The notes beneath the pieces were generated by a model, which saw only the letters and a program-made list of their open reading frames with translations, ran no database searches and was not told the origin of the DNA. Below, in pieces: positions 15,517-53,143 of a stretch of DNA of 64,000 nt. How positions within the stretch are numbered: position 1 is the stretch's first letter; each line of letters opens with the position of its first letter. The translations under genes and the position numbers were made by a program. The stretch spans positions 124,001 through 188,000 of the forward strand of contig CAITIE010000052.1 of the NCBI GenBank assembly GCA_903892355.1, written 5' to 3'. Source of the DNA: an uncultured Pirellula sp. (lineage in GTDB: Bacteria > Planctomycetota > Planctomycetia > Pirellulales > Pirellulaceae).

Positions 15517-15580
15517 GTAAATCCTTTAAGGAGTCCCTCTTTGGGATGTGGAAATCTCCCACAAAAAGACTCCGCTTAAA

Positions 15581-15607
15581 CCGATTTTTCCGGTTTTTCC
15601 GGTTTTT
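15581..15607. repeat. 9-bp tandem repeat, three copies
   Basis: Three adjacent copies of a CCGRTTTTT unit (one CCGATTTTT, two CCGGTTTTT) in the divergent region between the GT2 gene (minus) and the large membrane protein gene (plus). T-rich on the plus strand. Possibly a slippage tract; no known function. Confidence 0.8.
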
Positions 15608-15700
15608 CCGAATATTGATGGGATCCTGTCCCCCGATCGGCGTCAAAATAAATGGATAACGCCAGATTCTCCCAGGCACCTCGGACAAGGCATAAATTCA

Positions 15701-18181
15701 ATGAGACTAACCTTGAGAACGCTCCTGGCGTATCGAGACGGGGTGCTCGATGCCGTTCACGTTTCGGAGCTGAAACGGAAATTCGAAGAAAGCACGACCG
15801 CGCGATCCATTTCACAAAGGATTGAATCGGGGATTCGCAATCGCAAGTTGCTTACCCTCCCGATCGATGCCAAGGGTTTTGGCGTTGACCCGAATGATGT
15901 TGCAACCTTTCTCGATGGCACCATGCCGTTGGATCGGCTTCCAGACATGGAACGGCAATGCCTTGAAAGCAACTCCCTCTTGGCTGAGGTTGCCGCGTCG
16001 CATCAGATCCTGAGCCGAGCGTTACGGGCAAATACCTCCGTCAGCCAGGAACTGCTTGACCGATTGTTACGAGTAGGAAATACAACCTCAGTGTCGCCTC
16101 TCGCTCAAACTCCCCACGGATCCAAAACGGGGTACGGATCCGAAGCTTTGCGAATAGAAAAAGAATCGGCTCGAACGGCAGAGCCATTCATAGAAGCACC
16201 CGATAGTCGAGTCTCCATCATTCGTCGAGCCGACTCAAATCACACACCTTTAAATGCTCCTAATTTGCACCGACTCAATGTCCCGAACGACCATGTAGCA
16301 CACGAAGCAAGTGCGGCTCCAGCGAGGATTTCAGATTCCGATGCCGAGTTTGGGAGTCCCGCTGACCACGCGCTGTCCGGATCCTTGAGAAGGAACTCAG
16401 GGGTTATCGACGACTTCGTCAACACTGGCATCGAACTTGATAATCAATTGGGTTCGCAAATCCCCGAGTACCTACTCGGCGGCGATAAAAAGGGATTCTC
16501 CGACCTACTGACGATTGCCATCCTGCTCACGCTCTTTATCTTTTCCGTTTGGATGGCGATGGGGCCGCTCGATCAAATTCGAGGACTACTAGTCGCGCAG
16601 ACTCGAACGCTTCCTCCGCAAACCCACGAGCCTTTCCACACACCCGCTTCAGGAACACCCTCGGATTCCCCCCAAGTCAAAGAACGAGAATTGGATGCAG
16701 CAAAAATAGTCGAGCCGACGGCACCTCTCGACAGCCCCGAAACAGTACTGGATTCACCAGAAGACCCCGCGGAGGGAAGCACCGATCGGTTACCTGTAGA
16801 CCGCGCTCCCCAATCCGATCGGCCCAACGACCAGGTCATCAGTCCAACGCGCACGAGCGACTCGAATCTAAGCAGTGCTTTGGGGACTACGGAACCTGTG
16901 GGCACTGCCGGCAGCTTTGCCACTACCACTTGGACTTGGCCAGCTGCATCGAACCCAGAAACTATTCGGTTCCTTTTCGTGAAGGGTAAAAACCAGCCAG
17001 ATTGGTCAATGAAAGCCAACTCCGAAAAAGTCGTTATCCCATCGAGTGACCAAATCACAATCGTTGCTCCTTCATATTGCGAGTTGACGACGAGTTCCAC
17101 GGACCAACGATCAGATTTCCGATGGATCATTTCCGGGGATACCAAAGTGGAATACGTCGACACATCCGAGCAATCACCTCGATTTCGTTTAGCGACTCGA
17201 TTCGCGAAAATCCTTCCATCGGAAAAAAGCCGATCGCTAGAGCTCGAACTCGATTCCGGGATTTTAGTCCTCCATTTTTTATCGAGCCAGAGCGAAGCCT
17301 GCATTCAAACTCGCAGCCAACTTCCCCACACTGCCATCGCAGTACCAGACGCACTCATTGGCCTCGGCGAAGCACGAATCGCTGCAGTGGGTGGAGAATT
17401 GGTAGTGGATTGGAAGCCGAGAAACCTCCTGCCACCCTCGTCGATGGATCCAACATTCACCGAAAAAGCAAATGTCGGTTTAAGCGATGTCGTGTTGAGC
17501 CCGTTCCACGAAGCCGTGATCGCATCGCCCAAGGAAGGTGAAGCCACCTTTTTTACCCTCCAGACCCAGCGTTCCGAATTCCCTTGGTGGTTGGGGGATG
17601 AGCTGGATTTTGGGAATTATCCGAGACTAACACCGATGCAGCAAGCAATGCTGGCCTCGCCAAGCGATTGGATGGACACACTGGACCGATTTGCAAAAAG
17701 CGACGACATCGAGGCTGCTCTAGAAGGATTGTATACGCAGATCCAACTCGGAAAGTACGAGCTATTATTCGGTTCCGACGGAATCTTTCGACGCGCAGAA
17801 CTACAGTCGGAATTGGGTAACCTCCTCGATCATCTACTGACGCAATTTAGAAGCGCGGAGGAGGTAGCAGAGTTCCAAACTCAGTTGAAGGCACACGTCG
17901 GTGAACGCGACGTCGCGGTCATGGAGCTTTTGATTCCTAAAACGAATCGTGAACTCGAATCAGGTTCCGATAAACAACTCGTCGACTATTTGTCGGATTC
18001 CATGATCGACATTCGAGCATTAGCGATCATGCAACTGGAAATGCTCACGGGCGTTACTCATGGTTACCAAGCCACCAATCCTTCGGCAGAGTCGCTACAA
18101 GCATGGAAACGGAGTTTGGCGAAGAAGCAAATACGATCGCGGGGATCAAGCGGCCCCGAGCAGCCCGAACTCAACCAATAA
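15701..18181 (+). CDS. large single-span membrane protein with planctomycete-type N-terminal domain
   Basis: The first ~110 residues (MRLTLRTLLAYRDGVLDAV, then a helical domain ending near LRANTSVSQELLDRLLRVG) match, from memory, a leader domain that recurs in planctomycete proteins and resembles anti-sigma-factor zinc-finger regions without cysteines. A single membrane helix follows at about residues 267-288 (LLTIAILLTLFIFSVWMAMG), so the N-terminus is probably cytoplasmic and the remaining 540 residues external. The external part starts with a Pro/Ser/Thr-rich linker and has no domain I recognise. The frame is open upstream to 15548, but the start is placed at 15701 because the leader begins there. 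Role unknown. Confidence 0.85.
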   Translation: MRLTLRTLLAYRDGVLDAVHVSELKRKFEESTTARSISQRIESGIRNRKLLTLPIDAKGFGVDPNDVATFLDGTMPLDRLPDMERQCLESNSLLAEVAASHQILSRALRANTSVSQELLDRLLRVGNTTSVSPLAQTPHGSKTGYGSEALRIEKESARTAEPFIEAPDSRVSIIRRADSNHTPLNAPNLHRLNVPNDHVAHEASAAPARISDSDAEFGSPADHALSGSLRRNSGVIDDFVNTGIELDNQLGSQIPEYLLGGDKKGFSDLLTIAILLTLFIFSVWMAMGPLDQIRGLLVAQTRTLPPQTHEPFHTPASGTPSDSPQVKERELDAAKIVEPTAPLDSPETVLDSPEDPAEGSTDRLPVDRAPQSDRPNDQVISPTRTSDSNLSSALGTTEPVGTAGSFATTTWTWPAASNPETIRFLFVKGKNQPDWSMKANSEKVVIPSSDQITIVAPSYCELTTSSTDQRSDFRWIISGDTKVEYVDTSEQSPRFRLATRFAKILPSEKSRSLELELDSGILVLHFLSSQSEACIQTRSQLPHTAIAVPDALIGLGEARIAAVGGELVVDWKPRNLLPPSSMDPTFTEKANVGLSDVVLSPFHEAVIASPKEGEATFFTLQTQRSEFPWWLGDELDFGNYPRLTPMQQAMLASPSDWMDTLDRFAKSDDIEAALEGLYTQIQLGKYELLFGSDGIFRRAELQSELGNLLDHLLTQFRSAEEVAEFQTQLKAHVGERDVAVMELLIPKTNRELESGSDKQLVDYLSDSMIDIRALAIMQLEMLTGVTHGYQATNPSAESLQAWKRSLAKKQIRSRGSSGPEQPELNQ

Positions 18182-19339: not shown

Positions 19340-21481
19340 CTAGCTGTTGCTGTCGTCAATTGTCGTAGGGAGTTTGCGTTCGAGCAAGGCCGCGCCATTG
19401 CGATAGAGCATTTTCCAAATCGATTCGTAGCCATCGGAAAAACGAATCGTGCACACGCTTCCTATTTGTGGCAATCGATCTTGTGGATTGCTCAATTCGA
19501 CATGCGCTGCTAATCGCGGTTGATCGGTTTTCAGTTCTTCCGAGCCATCTGGCTTTCGATCGACGGATACCACGAGCGGACCTCCGTAGATCGCGGCCAA
19601 CGATGGGTAATCGATATATTGCTCGGCGTGTGGCATCGAGCGGAGCAGTTGTCCGAGGATCGAGCCGTTCGATGAACGATAGACCATAACCGGTTTGCCC
19701 AGATTTCTTGATACCCTTTCCCATTCCGATTGAGGGATGGATGCTCGGACCTCCAATTGGCTCGGATTCGCAATCAATCCCAACATCGCTCCTTCTTGCA
19801 GGAAACTTCCAGTCCAATGCTTGGAGTCTCGGGCGATGAGAACACCATCCCGCTGTGCTCGCACTTGAAGCGACTCCACTTTTTTCTCCAGGCTTTGAAG
19901 CTTCACCCGAAGGGACTCGAGCAACGATTCCTCATTTTGCAGTTCGGTTAGTTTTTGCTGAGTGCGAAGGCTGTTGCATCTTTCGCTGCAGAGCAAGAAC
20001 TCAGTCCTAGCCCGTTCGCACTCCAACTCCACATCGGGATTCGAAAGCTCCAAGATACAAGTACCAGCGGTTACATAATGGCCATCGTATGCATGGACGC
20101 TTCGAATGAAACCCGACACATCGGTCCTCAGTTCCTGTGGCTCAACGAAGTCCACCACACCAGGCCACACTACCTGAAGAGGACTTGGAGCAAACCCCAG
20201 CAGTGCAACGCTCAGGCCTACGATGGATGCCCGAAATGCTTTCCTTGGGCAGATCGATGCGAAAAGCGAAGCAGCCTGTGGAGATTGACTCGTTTTTCGT
20301 TTCGCGAGAAATGGGAATACGAACCAAATCCCGACGAAAAATGAAACAATAGCTAATCCAACACCATCCCATGCGATGAAGACACCCCATCCCATAGTGA
20401 TGATGAGTACCATCCTGGAGATCCACGAAGCGATCCCGTAAAGGATTACCATCGGCGTACCGTAACTAACTTCGCTATCCTTGGTGATTAACGAGCGAAC
20501 GAAGCCTCTCATCGCCCGATTTGCATCCTGCCACAAATTCGGTCGCCCCAGCCAATCGATCAATATGTAGTAACCGTCATAACGCATGAGTGGGTTTGCG
20601 TTGAAGGCGAACGTCGTCACCGTTCCCAGCGACGCAATCGAAGCGCAAAGATATCGTAAATTGCTGTTCTCGGTGGAACAGGCGACGATGGCACACACGG
20701 CTGCCAATGTCAATTCAAAAATCATCCCGGCGCTGCTAACCAACATCCGGTACCATTTGTTTTCAAGCGTCCATAATCGGGACACGTCGACATAAGGAGA
20801 CGGTGCGAAAAAAATAAAGCCGAGGCCAGCACCGGATGTCCTAACATGAACACGCTCACACGCGATCGCGTGCCCCGCTTCGTGAACAGCTTTCAAGATT
20901 AGCCAAGCGATCAACCACCACCATTGGCTTCCGGGAATGAACAATTCACTGGTAACGGAATTGAGTTCCTGCCAGTTGCTAAACGCGTAGACGGCCCCCG
21001 TCATCCAGATCAAGATCGCACAGATCAGACTCGGCCATGAAACGAGGAATTTCCATGGCTGGCAAAAGTGATGGATCCATTTACTCGACAATAGGGGGAA
21101 CCGAACGAAACTCGGGTCAAACGGTCGAACCGGAGCATTGGGCTTCGGTGCAGGCGGGCTTGATTTGGTACCTTCAAAGGGAGATTCCGTAAACTCCGGC
21201 GCGGTTGCGGGTTCGAGAAGTCCCGATTGCATTAGCCACGAAACTAACTTCTGAAGCTTTCCAGGATCGACGCCCTCGCTTTCCCCATAGGCTTGCAGGA
21301 TCTCGATTGCGTCGTTGAGAAGCATCGGCTTTGCGAACAACGAGCAAAGGGTGTATTCCATTTTCCCAAGCCGAATAATCCTTCCAGAAGACTTGTCATC
21401 AACGATGTATTTCAAGTCGTTGCCGGATCGGACGGGCGAGATTTGGAGGTCAGAGCGAAGCCGAAATGCAATGGGATTCAT
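19340..21481 (-). CDS. PqqD/RRE-like – M50 (S2P) metalloprotease – HlyD fusion protein
   Basis: Three parts in one 713-residue chain. Residues about 20-95 look like a PqqD/RRE winged helix (RLGKMEYTLCSLF through LVSWLMQSGLLEP). Residues 144-437 are a polytopic site-2-protease core: the zinc motif HEAGH at 200-204 lies in a membrane helix, and the third ligand motif is NPLMRYDGYY (Asp302). From about 440 a HlyD/biotinyl-lipoyl adaptor domain follows (GVVDFVEPQELRTDVSGFI, a coiled-coil hairpin, then IARDSKHWTGSFLQEGAML). Expected to sit in the inner membrane with the adaptor outside. It is the third gene of a tight operon with two more HlyD-type genes (gap 16 bases). I infer peptide processing plus export; no substrate gene is seen. 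Confidence 0.88.
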   Translation of the reverse strand: MNPIAFRLRSDLQISPVRSGNDLKYIVDDKSSGRIIRLGKMEYTLCSLFAKPMLLNDAIEILQAYGESEGVDPGKLQKLVSWLMQSGLLEPATAPEFTESPFEGTKSSPPAPKPNAPVRPFDPSFVRFPLLSSKWIHHFCQPWKFLVSWPSLICAILIWMTGAVYAFSNWQELNSVTSELFIPGSQWWWLIAWLILKAVHEAGHAIACERVHVRTSGAGLGFIFFAPSPYVDVSRLWTLENKWYRMLVSSAGMIFELTLAAVCAIVACSTENSNLRYLCASIASLGTVTTFAFNANPLMRYDGYYILIDWLGRPNLWQDANRAMRGFVRSLITKDSEVSYGTPMVILYGIASWISRMVLIITMGWGVFIAWDGVGLAIVSFFVGIWFVFPFLAKRKTSQSPQAASLFASICPRKAFRASIVGLSVALLGFAPSPLQVVWPGVVDFVEPQELRTDVSGFIRSVHAYDGHYVTAGTCILELSNPDVELECERARTEFLLCSERCNSLRTQQKLTELQNEESLLESLRVKLQSLEKKVESLQVRAQRDGVLIARDSKHWTGSFLQEGAMLGLIANPSQLEVRASIPQSEWERVSRNLGKPVMVYRSSNGSILGQLLRSMPHAEQYIDYPSLAAIYGGPLVVSVDRKPDGSEELKTDQPRLAAHVELSNPQDRLPQIGSVCTIRFSDGYESIWKMLYRNGAALLERKLPTTIDDSNS

Positions 21482-21497
21482 GTTGTCACTTGTTGTG

Positions 21498-23123
21498 TTA
21501 CCAGACCCACTGCTGTGATAGCCACTGAACGGGTCGATGGAAGAGCAACCATCCCAACGTTCGCCATCCCGCTCCGATGCGAGCGGAGGCTTTCATCCCG
21601 GGGCGCAGCCCTGATTCTGAGTCTCGTATAAGTACATCCGCTACGAACACCGCCTCGTTTTCGATGACTGTGGCCCGTGGATCGATACGGAGAATTTTGC
21701 CGTGGAAGGCTCGGAATCCCGTCGCATCGGAGCGAACTGTAACCGTGTCCCCAACAGAGATTTGCTCCAAATCGTATGCAGATAGTCGCACCTCGGCCGT
21801 CATCAATCCGAGCTCGGCAACTTCGAATAGGTTTTGACCTAAATTGACCGGCATCCCAATGCTTTTTTGAAGATCGCCGTAGATGACAACTCCAGTGACC
21901 GGGGTTCGTATTTCAAGCCGGTCCAACTGATTTTGAATGCTGTCGATCTTCAATTGCGCTTGTTCGCACTCGAGCATCGCAAGTGAATAGTTGCTGGACG
22001 CTTTGTTCGCGAGGGCCGCATTTGCCTTTTGCTTCGCCGACTCGAATTCCGCCTTCGCGGTCGCCAAATCACGTTGCATTTGATCATCGTCGATCGTCGC
22101 TAAAAGCTCCCCTTTATTGACAAAATCCCCAGGACGCACTGAGCTTGTCGCAATTCGGCCCTGTATCGGGCTAGCCACAAACTGTTTCGCCTCAGGTTCT
22201 ATGACGCACTCTCGCTTTGGAAAATACGGGATCGGGAGTGTCATCAGCAGGATCATCAATGCCACGGGGATAGCACACCAGCGAGGATTCGATACCATCC
22301 AATCCACGATCCCAATCCATCTCGAAAACTTTCGGTTTCGACGAATGGCATACCATGCATCAACCTGCGTCATGACATGCTCAAACTTGTTTTCGCAAAG
22401 CTTCGCGAATCGTTCACGGGCAGTTGAGGATTCCACACTGCAAATCATCAAACAACTGCCCCTGGATTCCTGGAGCGGAAAGGTCTTGACCGCAATCGCA
22501 CGATCACCGAGCTTTTGCGTCCACTGACTCAAAAGTAAACTCGGCTGAAACACGAGCTTTTGGAAGGATTCAACGTCATTGATCCAATCAGGTTCCGCGA
22601 TCGCGTAGTGCCCGGACTTGCTCCAAAGTGACTCACGTGCAACAGTGGTCAGATCCGGCAAGTAGCTTCGGAATTCGCTGGATCGCCAACCGCATTGGCC
22701 ACTCTCTACGACACTCCCGGAAGGTGATAGAACCAGGATCGCAGTTCGCTCCGTGGTGAACCTTGCGACCGACTCGGCTATTTGCTGCAAGCAGAGCGGG
22801 GAAAACAGATTTGCACTATTGCTCTGCGGAAAGGCCGGTGTGTCGACGTCGCCCGTCGAAGGATTCGGAGTGGACTTGAACTCAACTTGGCAAGAGCGAC
22901 GAGCGCTCGCACCTGCTGTTTGGGTTCCGTCGGAGGTCAAACCTGACAGGAGCGATGTTATCTTGTCAATCAAGCCTTCGTTTGCTGGAGCAGCGGAAGG
23001 ACTACAAATCCGCCTGATATCCTCAGCCAAATCGAATGACTTCCCCGCACCCACCGAAGTTACTTCGGCGGTTCGATCGAGATCGTCTCCGTTAGTCGTT
23101 GGTGTCGTTGAGCCAGAGCTCAT
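21498..23123 (-). CDS. HlyD-type adaptor with cytosolic GAF-like domain
   Basis: 541 residues. The first ~100 are polar and variable; residues about 105-250 form a mixed alpha/beta domain that resembles GAF (TERTAILVLSPSGSVVE, then AIAVKTFPLQESRGSCLMI), an inference from pattern only. One membrane helix follows at 281-300 (RWCAIPVALMILLMTLPIPY). The rest is a membrane fusion protein: ASPIQGRIATSSVRPGDFVN... with lipoyl half-motif, a coiled-coil hairpin, and beta-barrel region LRPGMKASARIGAG. So the sensor-like part is inside and the adaptor part outside. Neighbours on both sides are also HlyD-type proteins, with gaps of 21 and 16 bases. Confidence 0.88.
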   Translation of the reverse strand: MSSGSTTPTTNGDDLDRTAEVTSVGAGKSFDLAEDIRRICSPSAAPANEGLIDKITSLLSGLTSDGTQTAGASARRSCQVEFKSTPNPSTGDVDTPAFPQSNSANLFSPLCLQQIAESVARFTTERTAILVLSPSGSVVESGQCGWRSSEFRSYLPDLTTVARESLWSKSGHYAIAEPDWINDVESFQKLVFQPSLLLSQWTQKLGDRAIAVKTFPLQESRGSCLMICSVESSTARERFAKLCENKFEHVMTQVDAWYAIRRNRKFSRWIGIVDWMVSNPRWCAIPVALMILLMTLPIPYFPKRECVIEPEAKQFVASPIQGRIATSSVRPGDFVNKGELLATIDDDQMQRDLATAKAEFESAKQKANAALANKASSNYSLAMLECEQAQLKIDSIQNQLDRLEIRTPVTGVVIYGDLQKSIGMPVNLGQNLFEVAELGLMTAEVRLSAYDLEQISVGDTVTVRSDATGFRAFHGKILRIDPRATVIENEAVFVADVLIRDSESGLRPGMKASARIGAGWRTLGWLLFHRPVQWLSQQWVW

Positions 23124-23144
23124 GGTTGTCCAAGTTTCAGAGGG

Positions 23145-23981
23145 TTAGGGACGGATCAAATCGCAGGCAGAAGATCGAATATCATCGTTCGAATTATCGA
23201 TGAGAATCGTCATTTGAGTGATATTTTCGGTCGCGATGGGTGCAATGAACTCGATCTCTGCACTCACCACAACCCCATTGAGCAATCGGACATTAGCCGT
23301 TTTCCGCTCGCGGAATTTCTGTGCCATTTCATCGCTCAGCAAGAATCTGGCCCGCAGCTTTGAAGTATCCATAATCCGAACGATCGCGGGCTGAGTGGCG
23401 GCAACGTATTCTCCAACATCATGCAGCAACTCAACGATGATGCCTTCGTGGGGGGCTGAAATCGTACGTTCGTCTAGAGCATTCATGGCCTTGATCAATC
23501 TCGCATAAGCGATTTCTTTCGCTTCCTGTTGCGCAATCCATTTCGCGTGGGAGATATTCATTTCCAGCTCTTCGCGTTTCAGTTCCAATGGACTGACGCG
23601 AGTTCGCTTCGAAAGATCTTGGATTGCGACGAATTTTCGTCGATTGAACTCGTATTCATGGTGCGCGGTGTCAATGGTTCCCTGAGACTGCCACTCGATC
23701 TCCGCCTCTTCGACTTGAATGCGTTGCAGATTATCTTGTAGCTGGGCGATCTTTTGCCCCGGCTTCACCTTGTCTCCGGGCTTAACCGCGATCTCCTTGA
23801 TCACCCCAACTTCTGCAGTTGCGACTTCGGTATTGAGATGAGCTTCGAGGACTCCCCGAAGCGCATCTTCCTTGACATCAGTTGCTCGCCTCGGCAGTGC
23901 GGATTGAGCAAACGTGTGCTCCGCTGCAAATACCACACACAGAACGGACGTAATTCCGAGGATGGTTCGATTGGGATGCAT
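23145..23981 (-). CDS. periplasmic HlyD-family adaptor with signal peptide
   Basis: 278 residues with a signal peptide (residues 1-25, cleavage near TFAQS) and a compact membrane-fusion-protein fold: the lipoyl half-motif EVGVIKEIAVKPGDKVKPGQ, a short coiled coil (IQVEEAEIEWQSQGTIDTAH), the second half ISAPHEGIIVELLHDVGEYV and a beta-barrel. It is shorter than the usual 350-400 residues and lacks the membrane-proximal extension. First gene of the operon with the two larger HlyD-type genes. Probably the mobile periplasmic part of the same exporter. Confidence 0.9.
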   Translation of the reverse strand: MHPNRTILGITSVLCVVFAAEHTFAQSALPRRATDVKEDALRGVLEAHLNTEVATAEVGVIKEIAVKPGDKVKPGQKIAQLQDNLQRIQVEEAEIEWQSQGTIDTAHHEYEFNRRKFVAIQDLSKRTRVSPLELKREELEMNISHAKWIAQQEAKEIAYARLIKAMNALDERTISAPHEGIIVELLHDVGEYVAATQPAIVRIMDTSKLRARFLLSDEMAQKFRERKTANVRLLNGVVVSAEIEFIAPIATENITQMTILIDNSNDDIRSSACDLIRP

Positions 23982-48245: not shown

Positions 48246-51200
48246 TTAAGTACTGGTCGCCAGTCCTTCCGCATCCACCCGCACCGCGTTCTCCATCGCA
48301 CTGACACCCGAGGATTCGCTTCCCTCTGCACGTACACCGAACCTCTCTTCTTCGGTGAAAGTCACGAGCACGTAGAAGTGGTAGAGAAGCGGAACCATCA
48401 AGAGCACCAACAAGGTCGAACCCAGCAACCCAAAAGCGAGGCTCGTTGCCATCGGTATCAACGCTTGGGCTTGAAACGATTTCTCCAGCAACATCGGTGC
48501 TAGACCTGCAATGGTCGTTACGCTGGTCAAAAACACCGCTCTTAATCGTCTCGAACCGGCCGTAGTAATCGCTTCGCGAGGCAACATCCCTCGATGAATG
48601 CACTGATTGATAAAGTCGACCATGACGATCGAATCATTCACCACAACCCCGGCCAAGGTTACCATGCCGAACATGCTGAACAAAGTCAGCGGTAGACCTT
48701 GGAGTGCGTGCCCAAATATCGCCCCAACCATACCAAAGGGCACAATCGCGAGAACGATGAAGGGCTGAAGATACGATTTAAACTCAAAAACCAAGAGCAA
48801 GTACATCGCCAACATGGCAATAACAAAGCCGATGGCCAAGCTGTTAAACGACTCTGCTGTTTCTTGCTGCTGCCCTTCCCAACGAAATCGAAGCGAAGGG
48901 TACCTAGCCAATAACTTAGGGACCACGTCGGACTTCAAATCACTCGCTATCCGGGACGCATTCGCCTTGGACGTATCGAGTTCGGCGGAAACCGTGATGG
49001 AGCGGAGTTGGTCAAGGCGATTGATCTCGGAGTATCCTTGGGTGACTTTGATATCAGCAAGTTCCGCCAGCGGTCGATCTACATTGTCGGGGCCGCGCAC
49101 TCGCAAGTCCTGGAAGTCCGCGAGGGACTTGCGCTCGTTCGATGGATGCCGCACCATCAGCTTGACCTCGTGCCGCCCACGTTGCAAGCGCATGACCTCG
49201 GAGCCGTAATACGCACTTCGGATCGCCTCACTCAAATCTTCCTGCCGAATCCCTAACGATTTCGCTCTTTCTCGAATAGTGAATTGAAACTCCGTTTTGC
49301 CCGGATTCGAGTCATCGCGAATATCGTAAACGCCATCGTATTTAGCCAACGCCTCCTTGGCTGCTTCGACGGCTTCATCCAATTCTGCGATGTTTTCGCG
49401 TGGAGCCAGAATCTTGAACTCCAGCGGTTTTCCACCGGGACCTATATCGGCAGACTGAAACGTCACCCGTTCCGCCCCTGGGAACACGCCGGCCTCTTCT
49501 CGCCATAACTGAATCAACTGATCGCTGGTGATGTTCCGCTCGGTCGCGTCATGAATTTCGGCTTGCACCTGAGCGACGTGGGAACCGGATATCCGATCTC
49601 CCGCTCCTTGGTTACCAGCGTCTGCGGAGCCCACTCGAAGGAATGTTAGTTTTACGGGTCCTCGAGGAGCCGTCCGGTCGATAGGTTCTGGGGTTTTGTT
49701 CTTCCCCTCTTTGGTCTCGCGCTCGGCGACTTCTTCACTGATTCGACGGATTGCTTGTTCCATGCGTCTCGCTGCATCTGCGGTGATGGAGGCAGGGGTG
49801 CCATCGGGGTAGATCACCTGGCCAATGATCGTTTTCCCATCCAAACTCGGAAAGAACTCGAACGGCACAACACCCGATCGCACCATACCAACGGCCAAAC
49901 TGACCACGGTAAAACCCAACGCAAAGGGTATCAAAGGATGGCGCAGGAACAATTTCAGGACCGGCCCGTAAAAACTCTCACCGAACCAATCGAGCGCTGC
50001 ATTGCAACGAAGCGAAATGCGCTCGAAAAAGCGCTCGATCGGAATCAGAGGACGATTCAACAAATGTTGTATTCTCTGCAGTGCGGTCTTGGGTGGTTTT
50101 TCCTCGTGCGACAAGTGACCTGGTAACGCGAGCGATGCTTCCACGAGCGAAATCACCAACATCAGAATGATCGCTGCAGGCATGACCGCGATGAACTTAC
50201 CCATCACCCCCGACACATATAGCAGCGGCAAAAACGCGATGATCGTTGTCGCGACACTCGAGAAAACGCTCGGTAGAACTTCAATCGCTCCATCGATCGA
50301 AGCCTGCAAATTCGACTTGCCCATCGCACGGTGGGCAAAGATGTTTTCGCCGATCACGATGCCGTCGTCGACCACAATTCCAACCGCCATCAAAAATGCG
50401 AACATGGTCAACATATTCAGCGTCTCACCCATCACGTACAACCCGATCCCAGCGCCCATTAGGCTGATCGGGATTCCCATCGCCACCCAAAAGGCGAGTC
50501 TCAGGTTCAAGAACATCGCGAGCAACAAAAATACGATGATCCCACCTTGGAGCCCACTCTCTCGAAGCATGCGAATCCGATCCCGCACGTCGATGCTCTC
50601 ATCTCCCCAAGCGAGCAACGAGTAGCCGTCAGGCATCTCCATTCTCTTCACAAACGCAGTCACCTCTTCGGAGATATTCAATAGATCTTCGTTGCTCGTT
50701 CTCTCAATGCTGATCACCAACGCGGGTCGTCCGTTGATCTCATTGATCGCAGCAACATCGTCGAACTCATCACGAACACGACCGATGTCTCCGACTGTCA
50801 ACACCACCCCATTTGATTGAGCTATCAGCGGGAGCTTTGCGATGTCGTCCCCAAAATCCCGTTTGTTCTTCCCTCGCAACAGGATTTCCTGACCATCGCT
50901 TTTGAGTTGCCCGCTTGGCGTTTCCAAGTTCTCCTTGCGGATCATCATAGCGACCTGCGAAAGGGTTAACCCGTACTTTCGCAATGTATCCTCGCCCACC
51001 TCGACGTCGATTTGGTAGGGCTTGACGTTGAGCAGTTGTGCTTGCGAGACGTTCGGCAATTCAATCAATCGCTCTCGCACATTTTCAGCGAGTGTGCGCA
51101 AACGCTGTTCCGTGCCCGAGTCACCTTGTTTGGGACCCAGAATCGCAACTCGAATCGCAGGCAATCGAAATGTCACTTGTTCAACGGTCGCCTTTTCACT

Positions 51201-51572
51201 CCGCTCGGGGAAAAAGACCGAAATGCGGTCGACAGCCGAACGAACCTCGGAAAGTACCTTCTGTGCATCTTTGATATTCGGTTCGAGTTGCAGCAAGGTA
51301 AAGCCGCTTCCTTCGCGGCAGATGCTGGTCAGTTTTTTGATACCGGATAACGACTGAACGGCTTCTTCAATCTTTTGGCAAATGCCACTCTCAACCTCAT
51401 CCGGTGTGGCTCCAGGATAGGGAACACTCACGAGGATCACTTCCAACTGGAACTCAGGAAACGTTTCACGACGCATCCCAAAAAAGCTGAAGAGCCCCCC
51501 TAGAATCACAGCGAATACCAGGAAATTGACCCCCGCCATGTTTTTCACAGCCCATCGAATGACACTGCTCAT
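48246..51572 (-). CDS. RND efflux pump permease (AcrB/HAE1-like)
   Basis: 1108 residues with the two-fold RND layout: a helix near the start (AGVNFLVFAVILGGLFSFF), a large external loop, six helices, second loop, six helices. The N-terminal PYPGATPDEVESGICQKIE and the proton-relay aspartates in AVGIVVDDGIVIGENIF are diagnostic. In the partner helix, LAGVVVNDSIVMVDF has Asn-Asp where AcrB has the relay Lys (LSAKNAILIVEF), as in several non-AcrB subgroups, so coupling may differ. The substrate (drug, metal or lipid) cannot be read. It overlaps the adaptor gene by four bases (ATGA). Confidence 0.94.
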   Translation of the reverse strand: MSSVIRWAVKNMAGVNFLVFAVILGGLFSFFGMRRETFPEFQLEVILVSVPYPGATPDEVESGICQKIEEAVQSLSGIKKLTSICREGSGFTLLQLEPNIKDAQKVLSEVRSAVDRISVFFPERSEKATVEQVTFRLPAIRVAILGPKQGDSGTEQRLRTLAENVRERLIELPNVSQAQLLNVKPYQIDVEVGEDTLRKYGLTLSQVAMMIRKENLETPSGQLKSDGQEILLRGKNKRDFGDDIAKLPLIAQSNGVVLTVGDIGRVRDEFDDVAAINEINGRPALVISIERTSNEDLLNISEEVTAFVKRMEMPDGYSLLAWGDESIDVRDRIRMLRESGLQGGIIVFLLLAMFLNLRLAFWVAMGIPISLMGAGIGLYVMGETLNMLTMFAFLMAVGIVVDDGIVIGENIFAHRAMGKSNLQASIDGAIEVLPSVFSSVATTIIAFLPLLYVSGVMGKFIAVMPAAIILMLVISLVEASLALPGHLSHEEKPPKTALQRIQHLLNRPLIPIERFFERISLRCNAALDWFGESFYGPVLKLFLRHPLIPFALGFTVVSLAVGMVRSGVVPFEFFPSLDGKTIIGQVIYPDGTPASITADAARRMEQAIRRISEEVAERETKEGKNKTPEPIDRTAPRGPVKLTFLRVGSADAGNQGAGDRISGSHVAQVQAEIHDATERNITSDQLIQLWREEAGVFPGAERVTFQSADIGPGGKPLEFKILAPRENIAELDEAVEAAKEALAKYDGVYDIRDDSNPGKTEFQFTIRERAKSLGIRQEDLSEAIRSAYYGSEVMRLQRGRHEVKLMVRHPSNERKSLADFQDLRVRGPDNVDRPLAELADIKVTQGYSEINRLDQLRSITVSAELDTSKANASRIASDLKSDVVPKLLARYPSLRFRWEGQQQETAESFNSLAIGFVIAMLAMYLLLVFEFKSYLQPFIVLAIVPFGMVGAIFGHALQGLPLTLFSMFGMVTLAGVVVNDSIVMVDFINQCIHRGMLPREAITTAGSRRLRAVFLTSVTTIAGLAPMLLEKSFQAQALIPMATSLAFGLLGSTLLVLLMVPLLYHFYVLVTFTEEERFGVRAEGSESSGVSAMENAVRVDAEGLATST

Positions 51573-53143
51573 TTCGACGATTCTCCGTTGGAATGCTTTT
51601 TCAAGGCCATCCGGACTTTGTCGTTACCATCTCCGATGATGTTGGACAACGGTGACACAATCAGTTTCTCATCGATTTTCAGGCCGTTCTTCGCCTCGGT
51701 AACCCAATACTCCTCATTACCGAGTGATGGCACGCGTATCAAACTAATCGTCCGGATCCCTCCGAGAATCTTTACTCGGCCGGCCTCCCACTCCTCAAGC
51801 TTAGGGAGGTTTAGTGCGACATCTAAGACCTTGCCCTCTCCATTTGTGACCTGCGCATTCGAATCCGAGCTAGGGGAAAGAATAGACGGGTCATCTTCGA
51901 ACTTCCAGATTTGCCCACCCGGCTTGAGGGCCAGTTTAGGCAGCAGGATCAACGCCTGCTTTGGGATGGTCTTGATAGCAACGTCGACGAACATCCCTCG
52001 CACCAAAGCCGGTAGTCCTCCATTGCCATCCTCAGTAATAAGTTCACCATTGCGGCGAACCTCTCTCGGATTATCGACCGTGATACGAACAGGTACTGTT
52101 CGACTCTGCGGATCCAAACCAATCCCTTCATATCGGCTTAGATGACCGCGCCATTGATAGACGATGTCATCTCTCCCGGAAACATGGTAGGAAACCTCCA
52201 CCGGGGTATTGGGGAGTTCATAGCTCGAGGACCGCATGACGCGCGACGACGACGAGCCGTCGTTGCCGTCGATTTGGTCGAGCACCAAAAGGAGTTGGTC
52301 GGTTCGAAGGTTGCAAGTCACCTCGACACGCTCGGTATCCTCGATCACACAGAGCGCAGATGCTTTCTGAACATAAGAGTCTTTTTGCACCGTCTCGTTC
52401 ACAATCACACCAGAGACGGGGGCTTTGATTTCCGAGCGTTCCAAGTTGATTTTTGCTTGACTCAACTGCGTTTCCGCCAAACGTTCTGCGAGCTCAAGTC
52501 GTGCGCGTCGCGTTTCCAAAAGCCGCAATTGATTCTGGATCGTAACCACCTGATTTTCGCTCATTAAGCGTTGTCGCTTCGCCTGGTCTTTCTCCGTGCC
52601 ACTGGCGAATCCCTCGGGCAACGTATCGATCCTGGCCACTTCTTTATCGAAGAGAGCCAATTCCTCCTCAGCGAGGGCTAGCGAGCGTTTTGCATTCGAA
52701 AGTTCCTGATCCAATTCATGTTGCTGCGCGTACTCGCTTTCTCGGAGAGCCGTCAACCTTTCGACATCCAAGTTGTAGTCGGTCGGATCGATGCGGAATA
52801 AAACATCCCCTTCATGAACGTAGCGGCCGATCCTGCACTCTTCGCTTTTATAGACGACTCTTCCGGCAACCTCGGCCGCGAGATTGATCTGACGGAAGGG
52901 AACCACCGTACCCGAAAGATTGATATCGAGGGTCGGGATCCCCTCAAAAGCCCTGACGGAGTCGACCCCAATGATTGGCAACCTGGAAAGGACGACTCGA
53001 GGGTTGGCAGCATCCTGGTTGACTTGTTTAGGTTTCTGAGTCCCTAAGGCTAGATAGATCCCTATGCCGAGGCCGACTATGGCAATGGGTAATCCGAGCC
53101 CAACGAACCAGCTTTTCAAGCTGTTTTGATCGGGTTGCGTCAT
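51569..53143 (-). CDS. RND efflux adaptor (membrane fusion protein)
   Basis: 524 residues with an N-terminal membrane helix (LPIAVGLGIGIYLALG region) and the MFP order: lipoyl half-motif NLAAEVAGRVVYKSEECR, a long alpha-hairpin (about 130-245), second half EIKAPVSGVIVNETVQKD, beta-barrel and membrane-proximal part. It is longer than the usual 380-400, with insertions in the C-terminal half. It links the RND pump downstream to an outer-membrane channel, which is not in the window. First gene of the pair. Confidence 0.93.
   Translation of the reverse strand: MTQPDQNSLKSWFVGLGLPIAIVGLGIGIYLALGTQKPKQVNQDAANPRVVLSRLPIIGVDSVRAFEGIPTLDINLSGTVVPFRQINLAAEVAGRVVYKSEECRIGRYVHEGDVLFRIDPTDYNLDVERLTALRESEYAQQHELDQELSNAKRSLALAEEELALFDKEVARIDTLPEGFASGTEKDQAKRQRLMSENQVVTIQNQLRLLETRRARLELAERLAETQLSQAKINLERSEIKAPVSGVIVNETVQKDSYVQKASALCVIEDTERVEVTCNLRTDQLLLVLDQIDGNDGSSSSRVMRSSSYELPNTPVEVSYHVSGRDDIVYQWRGHLSRYEGIGLDPQSRTVPVRITVDNPREVRRNGELITEDGNGGLPALVRGMFVDVAIKTIPKQALILLPKLALKPGGQIWKFEDDPSILSPSSDSNAQVTNGEGKVLDVALNLPKLEEWEAGRVKILGGIRTISLIRVPSLGNEEYWVTEAKNGLKIDEKLIVSPLSNIIGDGNDKVRMALKKHSNGESSK

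What the first reader, a model, noticed from the sequence alone, without database searches (positions are those of the whole stretch)
19340..23981. Three-gene HlyD operon with an RRE-like/M50-protease/HlyD fusion: possible peptide maturation and export machine
Seen: three tightly packed genes (gaps of 21 and 16 bases) all contain membrane-fusion-protein domains, one with a signal peptide, one with a single helix and a cytosolic domain, one fused to a site-2-protease core with HEAGH and NPLMRYDGYY. The protease starts with a winged-helix-like domain resembling PqqD. Known: PqqD-like domains (RREs) bind leader peptides of RiPPs, M50 proteases cut in or near the membrane, HlyD proteins link exporters. 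Inference: the operon could recognise, trim and export a peptide or membrane-bound precursor without a classical ABC or RND pump. No precursor gene was found.
Basis: partly seen in the sequence, partly recalled or inferred. Interest (0 to 1): 0.78.

Follow-up and report, generated by a model that had tools for sequence, protein, structure and literature searches.

The report
Leader-guided exporter for giant surface proteins
Three neighbouring genes in a planctomycete appear to build the inner half of a little-studied protein-export machine that recognises a short leader on giant cell-surface proteins, probably trims it, and passes the chain outward, which would give a long-unexplained group of bacterial genes a testable job.

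Summary
The three genes are real and as described. The M50 protein begins with a PqqD/RRE domain by profile and predicted fold; the second protein carries a GAF-like domain; HExxH is kept in 69 of 70 relatives. The set is the core of a locus type printed in 2015 (PMC4452313: secondary SecA, HlyD, GAF-HlyD, M50-HlyD, sometimes TolC), substrate unknown. It does not look like a RiPP cluster. The recurrent partner is a giant protein (DUF4347, cadherin, RTX) with an N-terminal LExRxL leader (LEPR-XLL) and mostly no signal peptide. In 273 genomes of the class of Methylomonas the M50 fusion co-occurs with DUF4347 (20 of 28 carriers, p=5.5e-14) and LEPR-XLL (16 of 18, p=1e-13). One genome encodes TolC, HlyD, leader giant, GAF-HlyD, M50 and SecA in one run. 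The window's genome holds such a giant and a secondary SecA, but on other contigs. Leader subtype tracks machine clade (1 of 15 against 12 of 14, p=2e-5; taxonomy confounds). Best reading: RRE- and protease-guided export of giant surface proteins. Binding, cleavage and transport are inferred; 12 of 38 machine carriers show neither mark.

The parts
23145..23981 (-). Gene 1, 278 aa: signal-peptide-bearing periplasmic HlyD/membrane-fusion protein
   Evidence: TIGR01730 103.4 bits over cut-off 94.9
21498..23123 (-). Gene 2, 541 aa: cytosolic GAF-like domain + one TM + periplasmic HlyD domain
22254..22826 (-). Residues 100-290 of gene 2: GAF-like fold (LasR-type ligand-binding domain, DosS GAF) and the start of the TM stretch
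   Evidence: AF2 pLDDT 80.4, pTM 0.68; Foldseek best E 1.1e-4, TMq about 0.3-0.5
19340..21481 (-). Gene 3, 713 aa: RRE (PqqD-like) + M50 site-2 protease + HlyD fusion
   Evidence: NF041824 daptide_HExxH 9.2e-36 over residues 25-385, 123.8 bits against a cut-off of 300
21197..21481 (-). Residues 1-95 of gene 3: PqqD-like RRE domain
20870..20884 (-). HEAGH, zinc-binding/catalytic motif of the site-2 protease (residues 200-204)
   Evidence: H200 and E201 in 70 of 70 rows, H204 in 69 of 70
20570..20602 (-). NANPLMRYDGY, second S2P motif (residues 294-304)
   Evidence: D302 in 18 of 18 rows of A1. The 70 of 70 is circular, because fetched loci by this motif
19343..20164 (-). Residues 440-713 of gene 3: HlyD-type periplasmic region after the last TM

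Best explanation
The operon encodes the inner-membrane/periplasmic core of a secretion machine for giant cell-surface proteins. Shown: RRE + S2P + HlyD fusion, GAF-like-HlyD and periplasmic HlyD encoded together; SecA-like ATPase, TolC-like protein and giant LEPR-XLL proteins in many related loci, and (dispersed) in this genome. Inferred: the cytosolic RRE binds the LE[DEP]R-x-L leader of a giant protein that lacks a signal peptide; the S2P core cuts the leader at or near the membrane; the SecA-like ATPase drives the chain into a conduit made by the three HlyD parts and a TolC-like protein; the GAF-like domain may gate it. In this genome the most likely cargo is the DUF4347/RTX/cadherin protein (at least 3646 aa) on contig C11, leader ...VDAIVLEERVLYSGTPMPV.
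For: RRE: 30 of 70 N-termini match PF05402 singly; profile best hits PqqD 3g2b 2.3e-5 and lasso RRE 6jx3 3.6e-5; Foldseek ranks 1-13 are RREs, PqqD or RiPP enzymes that carry RREs (RRE content of the larger ones recalled). Daptide protease model over RRE+M50; PMC10036551 passages state that MpaP, an RRE-dependent intramembrane peptidase, removes the daptide leader. HExxH conservation. Class of Methylomonas, 273 genomes: M50 fusion 38, DUF4347 28, both 20, expected 3.9, p=5.5e-14 (20 of 36 after dropping two doubtful carriers, p=1.3e-14); LEPR-XLL E<=1e-3 18, both 16, p=1e-13; E<=0.03 28, both 19, p=1.5e-12. Leader in 20 of 32 non-component ORFs >=1000 aa with visible N-terminus in the 80 loci, 3 of 84 of 600-999 aa, 3 of 342 of 200-599 aa; 0 of 247 component ORFs, 0 in 77,787 internal residues, 0.00015 of shuffles. 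Signal-like stretch in the first 60 residues: 1 of 24 leader ORFs against 42 of 51 small HlyD ORFs. One-run operon OEP-HlyD-giant-GAF/HlyD-M50-SecA in G121. Own genome: second SecA-type gene on C49, DUF4347 giant on C11 found at 1.0e-6 by a leader profile that holds no genus member. In same-genus G007 a leader ORF lies divergent to a window-type trio. Leader subtype follows M50 clade.
Against: The window operon has no SecA, TolC or giant gene beside it. 5 of 19 trio-bearing relatives show no DUF4347. 12 of 38 M50-fusion genomes in the class show neither DUF4347 nor LEPR-XLL. 2 of 8 machine-less DUF4347 genomes still have a leader-like motif (G191, G313), and two LEPR-XLL genomes (G144, G281) lack the fusion. 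LEPR-XLL rings at E<=1 in 58 of 60 relatives, so it does not discriminate there, and NF012209 does not match the C11 giant at E<=0.01. The window's RRE matches no Pfam family alone; Foldseek E-values stop at 1.8e-3. S2Ps are known for cutting in or near membranes (recalled), whereas the leader is mostly not hydrophobic. Genus-level tests are weak (p=0.015 and 0.07). Nothing here shows binding, cleavage or transport.
Confidence: 0.65

Rival explanations
1. RiPP maturation and export: the RRE-protease trims a small ribosomal peptide that the HlyD parts help export.
For: RRE-S2P fusions occur in daptide clusters (PMC10036551 passages); gene 3 matches NF041824.
Against: Radical-SAM-like ORFs are rare near the machine; NF041824 score far below its cut-off; giant leader proteins are the recurrent partner. 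ORFs under 80 aa were not examined.
Confidence: 0.08
2. The M50 protein serves as the protein-conducting pore (proposed in Kamneva et al. 2015), with the SecA-like protein as motor; protease activity is irrelevant.
For: Multiple TM stretches; that paper found no ABC homologue in the loci.
Against: HExxH is kept in 69 of 70 proteins, which a pure pore does not need. The two ideas are not exclusive.
Confidence: 0.12
3. Regulated-proteolysis sensor: GAF and M50 parts sense surface or export state and release a signal; the link to giant proteins is regulatory.
For: GAF-like domain. A recurrent neighbour cluster (7 of 80 loci) holds PAS sensors: a GGDEF/EAL protein between machine and giant in L171 and a PAS histidine kinase in L123; a further 4-locus cluster holds a HAMP histidine kinase (one or two members typed in each).
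Against: All three proteins carry HlyD domains, which fits a conduit; the sensors occur in few loci and need not be M50 targets.
Confidence: 0.1
4. Ordinary tripartite small-molecule efflux adaptor set with a decorative M50 domain.
For: HlyD family matches.
Against: No RND, ABC or MFS pump in the unit; conserved HExxH and RRE; co-occurrence with giants.
Confidence: 0.04

Closest known systems
Secondary SecA_DEAD / T1SS-related locus (Kamneva, Poudel & Ward 2015, PMC4452313)
   Same: HlyD, GAF-HlyD and M50-HlyD genes together; spread over PVC bacteria and Proteobacteria
   Different: The window operon stands apart from SecA and OEP. The words PqqD, giant, hemolysin and cadherin do not occur in that paper's main text; it calls the biological role unknown
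Daptide protease MpaP (NCBIfam NF041824; PMC10036551, passages seen)
   Same: N-terminal RRE fused to an intramembrane site-2 protease; leader removal assigned to it there
   Different: Here fused to a HlyD domain, apparently giant cargo, score below the family cut-off
Type I secretion system (HlyB-HlyD-TolC)
   Same: HlyD adaptors, TolC-like partner in related loci, RTX/cadherin cargo
   Different: No ABC transporter in the unit; N-terminal leader rather than a C-terminal signal (the latter recalled); SecA-like ATPase
Accessory Sec / SecA2 systems
   Same: A second SecA-like ATPase linked to large surface proteins (link recalled)
   Different: Here with HlyD, M50 and TolC parts; the two SecA-like proteins tested match SecA and SecA2 models below their cut-offs

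Membership tests
Kamneva 2015 locus | HlyD + GAF-HlyD + M50-HlyD proteins encoded together | tested here: met
   (GAF by fold only in the window protein; Pfam GAF in the paralogue L044)
Kamneva 2015 locus | Secondary SecA_DEAD gene in the neighbourhood | tested here: not met
   None beside the operon; one elsewhere in the genome, C49:23521. The paper notes such separation in some genomes
Kamneva 2015 locus | OEP/TolC protein nearby (some loci only) | tested here: not met
   None beside the operon; an OEP near the paralogue on C19
RRE / PqqD-like domain | PqqD fold and profile similarity | tested here: met
RRE / PqqD-like domain | Binds a leader peptide | not testable with these tools
   No complex prediction or assay run
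M50 site-2 protease | HExxH and NxxP...D motifs in a multi-TM protein | tested here: met
Daptide MpaP equivalog (NF041824) | Score over curated cut-off of 300 bits | tested here: not met
   123.8 bits
RiPP gene cluster | Small precursor gene and modifying enzymes nearby | tested here: inconclusive
   No recurrent candidate among ORFs >=80 aa apart from a DUF3467 protein of about 100-130 aa in 7 of 80 loci; shorter ORFs not tested
Type I secretion system | ABC transporter with HlyD and TolC | tested here: not met
   No ABC gene in the window operon; ABC-signature ORFs in 6 of 80 related loci
LEPR-XLL protein (NF012209), for the presumed cargo on C11 | Score over the curated cut-off of 17 bits | tested here: not met
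   No match at E<=0.01; found at 1.0e-6 by profile A5 built from leaders of other genera

The most novel reading that the evidence does not exclude
A secretion system of its own type: an RRE reads a LEPR-XLL leader that replaces the Sec signal peptide on giant proteins, a fused intramembrane protease cuts it, and a SecA-like motor pushes the chain through HlyD/TolC parts; separate machine clades in one cell serve separate leader subtypes.
Probability: 0.45. Interest if true: 0.88.

Novelty: new variant of a known kind. Interest (0 to 1): 0.72.

Why it matters
Secondary SecA/HlyD/M50 loci in Gram-negative bacteria were reported in 2015 without a substrate (PMC4452313). A leader-bearing class of giant proteins as cargo, and an RRE as reader of that leader, would explain how proteins of thousands of residues without an evident signal peptide leave the cell, extend RREs beyond small peptide products, and give direct tests: leader binding, leader cleavage, loss of surface giants.

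Tried and rejected
RiPP reading: few radical-SAM-like neighbours and no recurrent small gene except DUF3467. Substrate inside the window: a script scanning called window ORFs >=80 aa for a slightly widened leader motif printed no hit. Neighbour-based function: genes beside the trio differ between genomes of the genus except in close sisters. NF012209 as a discriminator inside the order: it rings in 58 of 60 at E<=1. Promoter and terminator scan: no more sites than in shuffles. Genus-only tests are weak: DUF4347 in 9 of 13 trio-positive against 2 of 13 trio-negative, p=0.015; subtype leader in 6 of 13 against 1 of 13, p=0.07. Paper PMC13274458 proved unrelated.

Limits and choices made after seeing data: trio-positive means a gene-2 match at E<=1e-40 (G039 at 1.9e-33 and G050 at 3.5e-23 counted as negative); the leader motif, the LEPR-XLL threshold 1e-3 and the A5 threshold 1e-4 were set afterwards (at 0.01 A5 rings in 14 of 19 trio-positive and 8 of 41 trio-negative relatives, counted by eye). 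Centre genome G060 was left out of the class counts because it was chosen for carrying the machine. In one search at most 4 candidates per genome were scored. My gene calls are longest-ORF calls; some recurrent neighbour clusters look like antisense ORFs. My DUF4347 HMM rests on four sequences. One search left out two loci of the window's clade (L093, L119); one search adds them, 0 of 13 becoming 1 of 15.
Full report
OBSERVATION. Searches confirm three minus-strand ORFs at the stated coordinates: 278 aa (23145-23981), 541 aa (21498-23123) and 713 aa (19340-21481), with gaps of 21 and 16 bases. Pfam gives HlyD families over cut-off in all three and Peptidase_M50 in the third. A simple Kyte-Doolittle script gives a signal-like stretch in the first, one TM stretch (280-302) in the second, and several up to about residue 438 in the third. 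The layout is therefore: periplasmic HlyD; cytosolic domain-TM-HlyD; cytosolic domain-S2P-HlyD.

DOMAINS. The N-terminal 100 residues of the M50 protein, aligned with 69 related N-termini from named genome contigs (A2), match solved PqqD (3g2b, 2.3e-5), a lasso-peptide RRE (6jx3, 3.6e-5) and PqqCD (5sxy, 2.4e-4) by profile. 30 of 70 members match PF05402 PqqD singly at E<=0.1; the window member matches no family. The AlphaFold2 model (pLDDT 83.7, pTM 0.70) has as its first 13 PDB matches TbiB1 with leader (1.8e-3, TM 0.60), TigE, PqqD, a lasso B1 protein, TbtB, MibB and MadB, all RREs or (recalled) RRE-bearing RiPP enzymes; rank 14 is human NO66, and no match is at E<=0.001. Residues 100-290 of the second protein model as a GAF-like domain: best matches LasR-type ligand-binding domains, further down DosS GAF (moderate TM). 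Of the S2P residues, H200 and E201 are kept in 70 of 70 proteins and H204 in 69 of 70; D302 is in 18 of 18 of an alignment not fetched by that motif, whereas its 70 of 70 is circular. Protease activity is therefore probably needed. NCBIfam's daptide protease model matches residues 25-385 at 9.2e-36 but far below its cut-off.

PRIOR ART. Kamneva, Poudel and Ward 2015 (PMC4452313; [quoted passage not shown] They proposed a secretion-related function, suggested the M50 protein as a possible pore, and called the biological role unknown. [quoted passage not shown] Paper searches for DUF4347 (4 papers), LEPR-XLL (2 papers) and combinations of HlyD, M50, SecA, PqqD, RRE and planctomycete terms listed no paper that by title, abstract start or the passages I opened links this machine to LEPR-XLL or DUF4347 proteins; subscription papers and preprints are mostly not held. 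[quoted passage not shown] Passages of PMC12710340, PMC7470986 and PMC11573180 added nothing on this link.

THE PARTNERS. In the same genus the trio sits among different neighbours; in several loci of other genera it sits with a TolC-like OEP, a SecA-like ATPase and giant proteins. The search for related loci returned 80 named loci (best 80 of 587). My classification finds M50 in 71 (the rest lost in ORF calling), GAF-HlyD in 67, small HlyD in 50, all three in 45, SecA-like in 38, OEP in 18, DUF4347 in 15, and a leader protein of >=600 aa in 23. All 15 DUF4347 loci hold a leader ORF. The largest recurrent non-component cluster, whose longest member is the DUF4347 giant of L108, covers 19 of 80 loci. 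Leader ORFs lie 0-2 genes from a component.

THE LEADER. The N-termini share a motif, L-E-x-R-x-[LMFVI]-[LFYMV]-[SDA]-[AG], which corresponds to NCBIfam's LEPR-XLL (NF012209). It occurs in 20 of 32 non-component ORFs >=1000 aa whose N-terminus is visible (17 strict, 3 loose), 3 of 84 of 600-999 aa, 3 of 342 of 200-599 aa (two of these last three are DUF4347 pieces), 0 of 247 component ORFs, 0 in 77,787 internal residues of giants, and 0.015% of shuffles. Positions outside the search pattern are also conserved in the 38 leaders listed: P at +10 in 28, E at -2 in 24. A signal-like stretch in the first 60 residues is seen in 1 of 24 leader ORFs (3 of 24 in 120), against 42 of 51 small HlyD ORFs by the same measure.

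CO-OCCURRENCE. In the class of Methylomonas (GTDB Gammaproteobacteria, recalled; 274 genomes searched, centre left out, so 273), 38 carry an M50-fusion match (E<=1e-25; two doubtful, G093 and G284), 28 DUF4347, 20 both (expected 3.9, p=5.5e-14); 18 carry LEPR-XLL at E<=1e-3, 16 of them with the fusion (p=1e-13); at E<=0.03, 19 of 28. LEPR-XLL is detected in 13 of 20 DUF4347 genomes with the machine and 0 of 8 without (p=0.0025). Reading those 8 directly softens this: two have leader-like motifs missed by the model (G191, G313); three begin with what look like classical signal peptides (G196, G233, G254; G196 and G254 confirmed by hydropathy, G233 by eye); two begin near the DUF4347 domain with neither (G286, G317); one is a short ORF (G102). 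12 of 38 machine carriers show neither mark. In G121 the order OEP, HlyD, 3177-aa giant with LEPRFLLSA (NF012209 4e-9; no Pfam family at 0.001), GAF-HlyD, M50, SecA runs on one strand with gaps of 2 to 49 bases.

THE WINDOW'S GENOME. It has three other M50-fusion genes, a second SecA-type gene (C49:23521, frame 696 aa), an OEP near the paralogue on C19, and a giant on C11 (at least 3646 aa, cut by the contig end) with two DUF4347 domains, RTX repeats and cadherin domains and the leader VDAIVLEERVLYSGTPMPV. It is the best leader hit in the genome by a profile that includes it (4.7e-7) and is found at 1.0e-6 by a profile without genus members, but not by NF012209 at E<=0.01. Five further ORFs with readable leader-like N-termini have the subtype LExRx[LM][LM]A[AG][DN]. 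Among 60 relatives the trio (19) and DUF4347 (19) co-occur in 14 (p=4.5e-6); within the genus without the own genome 9 of 13 against 2 of 13 (p=0.015). The non-genus leader profile rings at E<=1e-4 in 7 of 15 trio-positive and 1 of 41 trio-negative genomes outside its training genomes (p=2e-4); in the genus alone p=0.07. In G007 a leader ORF (cut by the contig end) lies divergent to a window-type trio.

SUBTYPES. The M50 tree (quick method) places the window in a 13-row genus clade inside a 49-row clade with DUF4347-linked planctomycete loci (SH-aLRT 99); a mostly proteobacterial 35-row group is separate (86). Leaders in loci of the first clade have D, E or N at +9 in 1 of 15 (the exception is L093, a long branch), those of the second in 12 of 14 (p=2.2e-5). 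Taxonomy confounds this, but Verrucomicrobia fall on both sides accordingly (L129, L179 against L168), and the window's genome holds both leader subtypes. Long branches such as L117 are uncertain.

MECHANISM. Most likely the RRE reads the leader, the S2P trims it, and a SecA-like motor with HlyD/TolC parts exports the chain. Domain identities, conservation and associations are shown; binding, cleavage, motor role and pairing with the C11 giant are inferred. Main weakness: the window operon itself is unlinked to the other parts. A regulatory role is not excluded, since PAS, GGDEF/EAL and kinase genes recur beside some machines.

Noticed in passing
L139:561-947, L092:14209-14649 and others: A small DUF3467 protein sits one or two genes from the machine in 7 of 80 loci; Pfam confirmed for one of these and for L092 outside the 80. 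Possible uncharacterised accessory part.
   Followed up: partly
L168:1309-2223 and similar (5 of 80 loci): A SapC-family (PF07277) protein recurs beside the machine (Pfam run on one member).
   Followed up: partly
L171:13108-16233: A PAS-GGDEF-EAL (cyclic-di-GMP) protein lies between the HlyD gene and the DUF4347 giant, hinting at biofilm-type control of the giant.
   Followed up: partly
L061:11531-13672: In sister genome G005 the M50-HlyD gene is in two ORFs (364 and 291 aa), so broken or mis-assembled there.
   Followed up: no
window 15548-18181 (+): 877-aa protein with no NCBIfam match at 0.1 and no Pfam match over cut-off, conserved in synteny in two sister genomes.
   Followed up: no
window 48246-53143 (-): AcrB-type RND pump (48246-51572) with an adjoining HlyD-family adaptor (51569-53143): an ordinary-looking RND unit separate from this operon.
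   Followed up: partly
G000:C52:323247, G000:C51:26948, G000:C19:5524 (L044-L046): Three further M50-HlyD fusions in the same genome with different partners.
   Followed up: partly
G002:C13:43527, G308:C84:83224, G121:C1:429854: Open frames of 14639, 14112 and 13848 residues hold LEPR-XLL matches.
   Followed up: no
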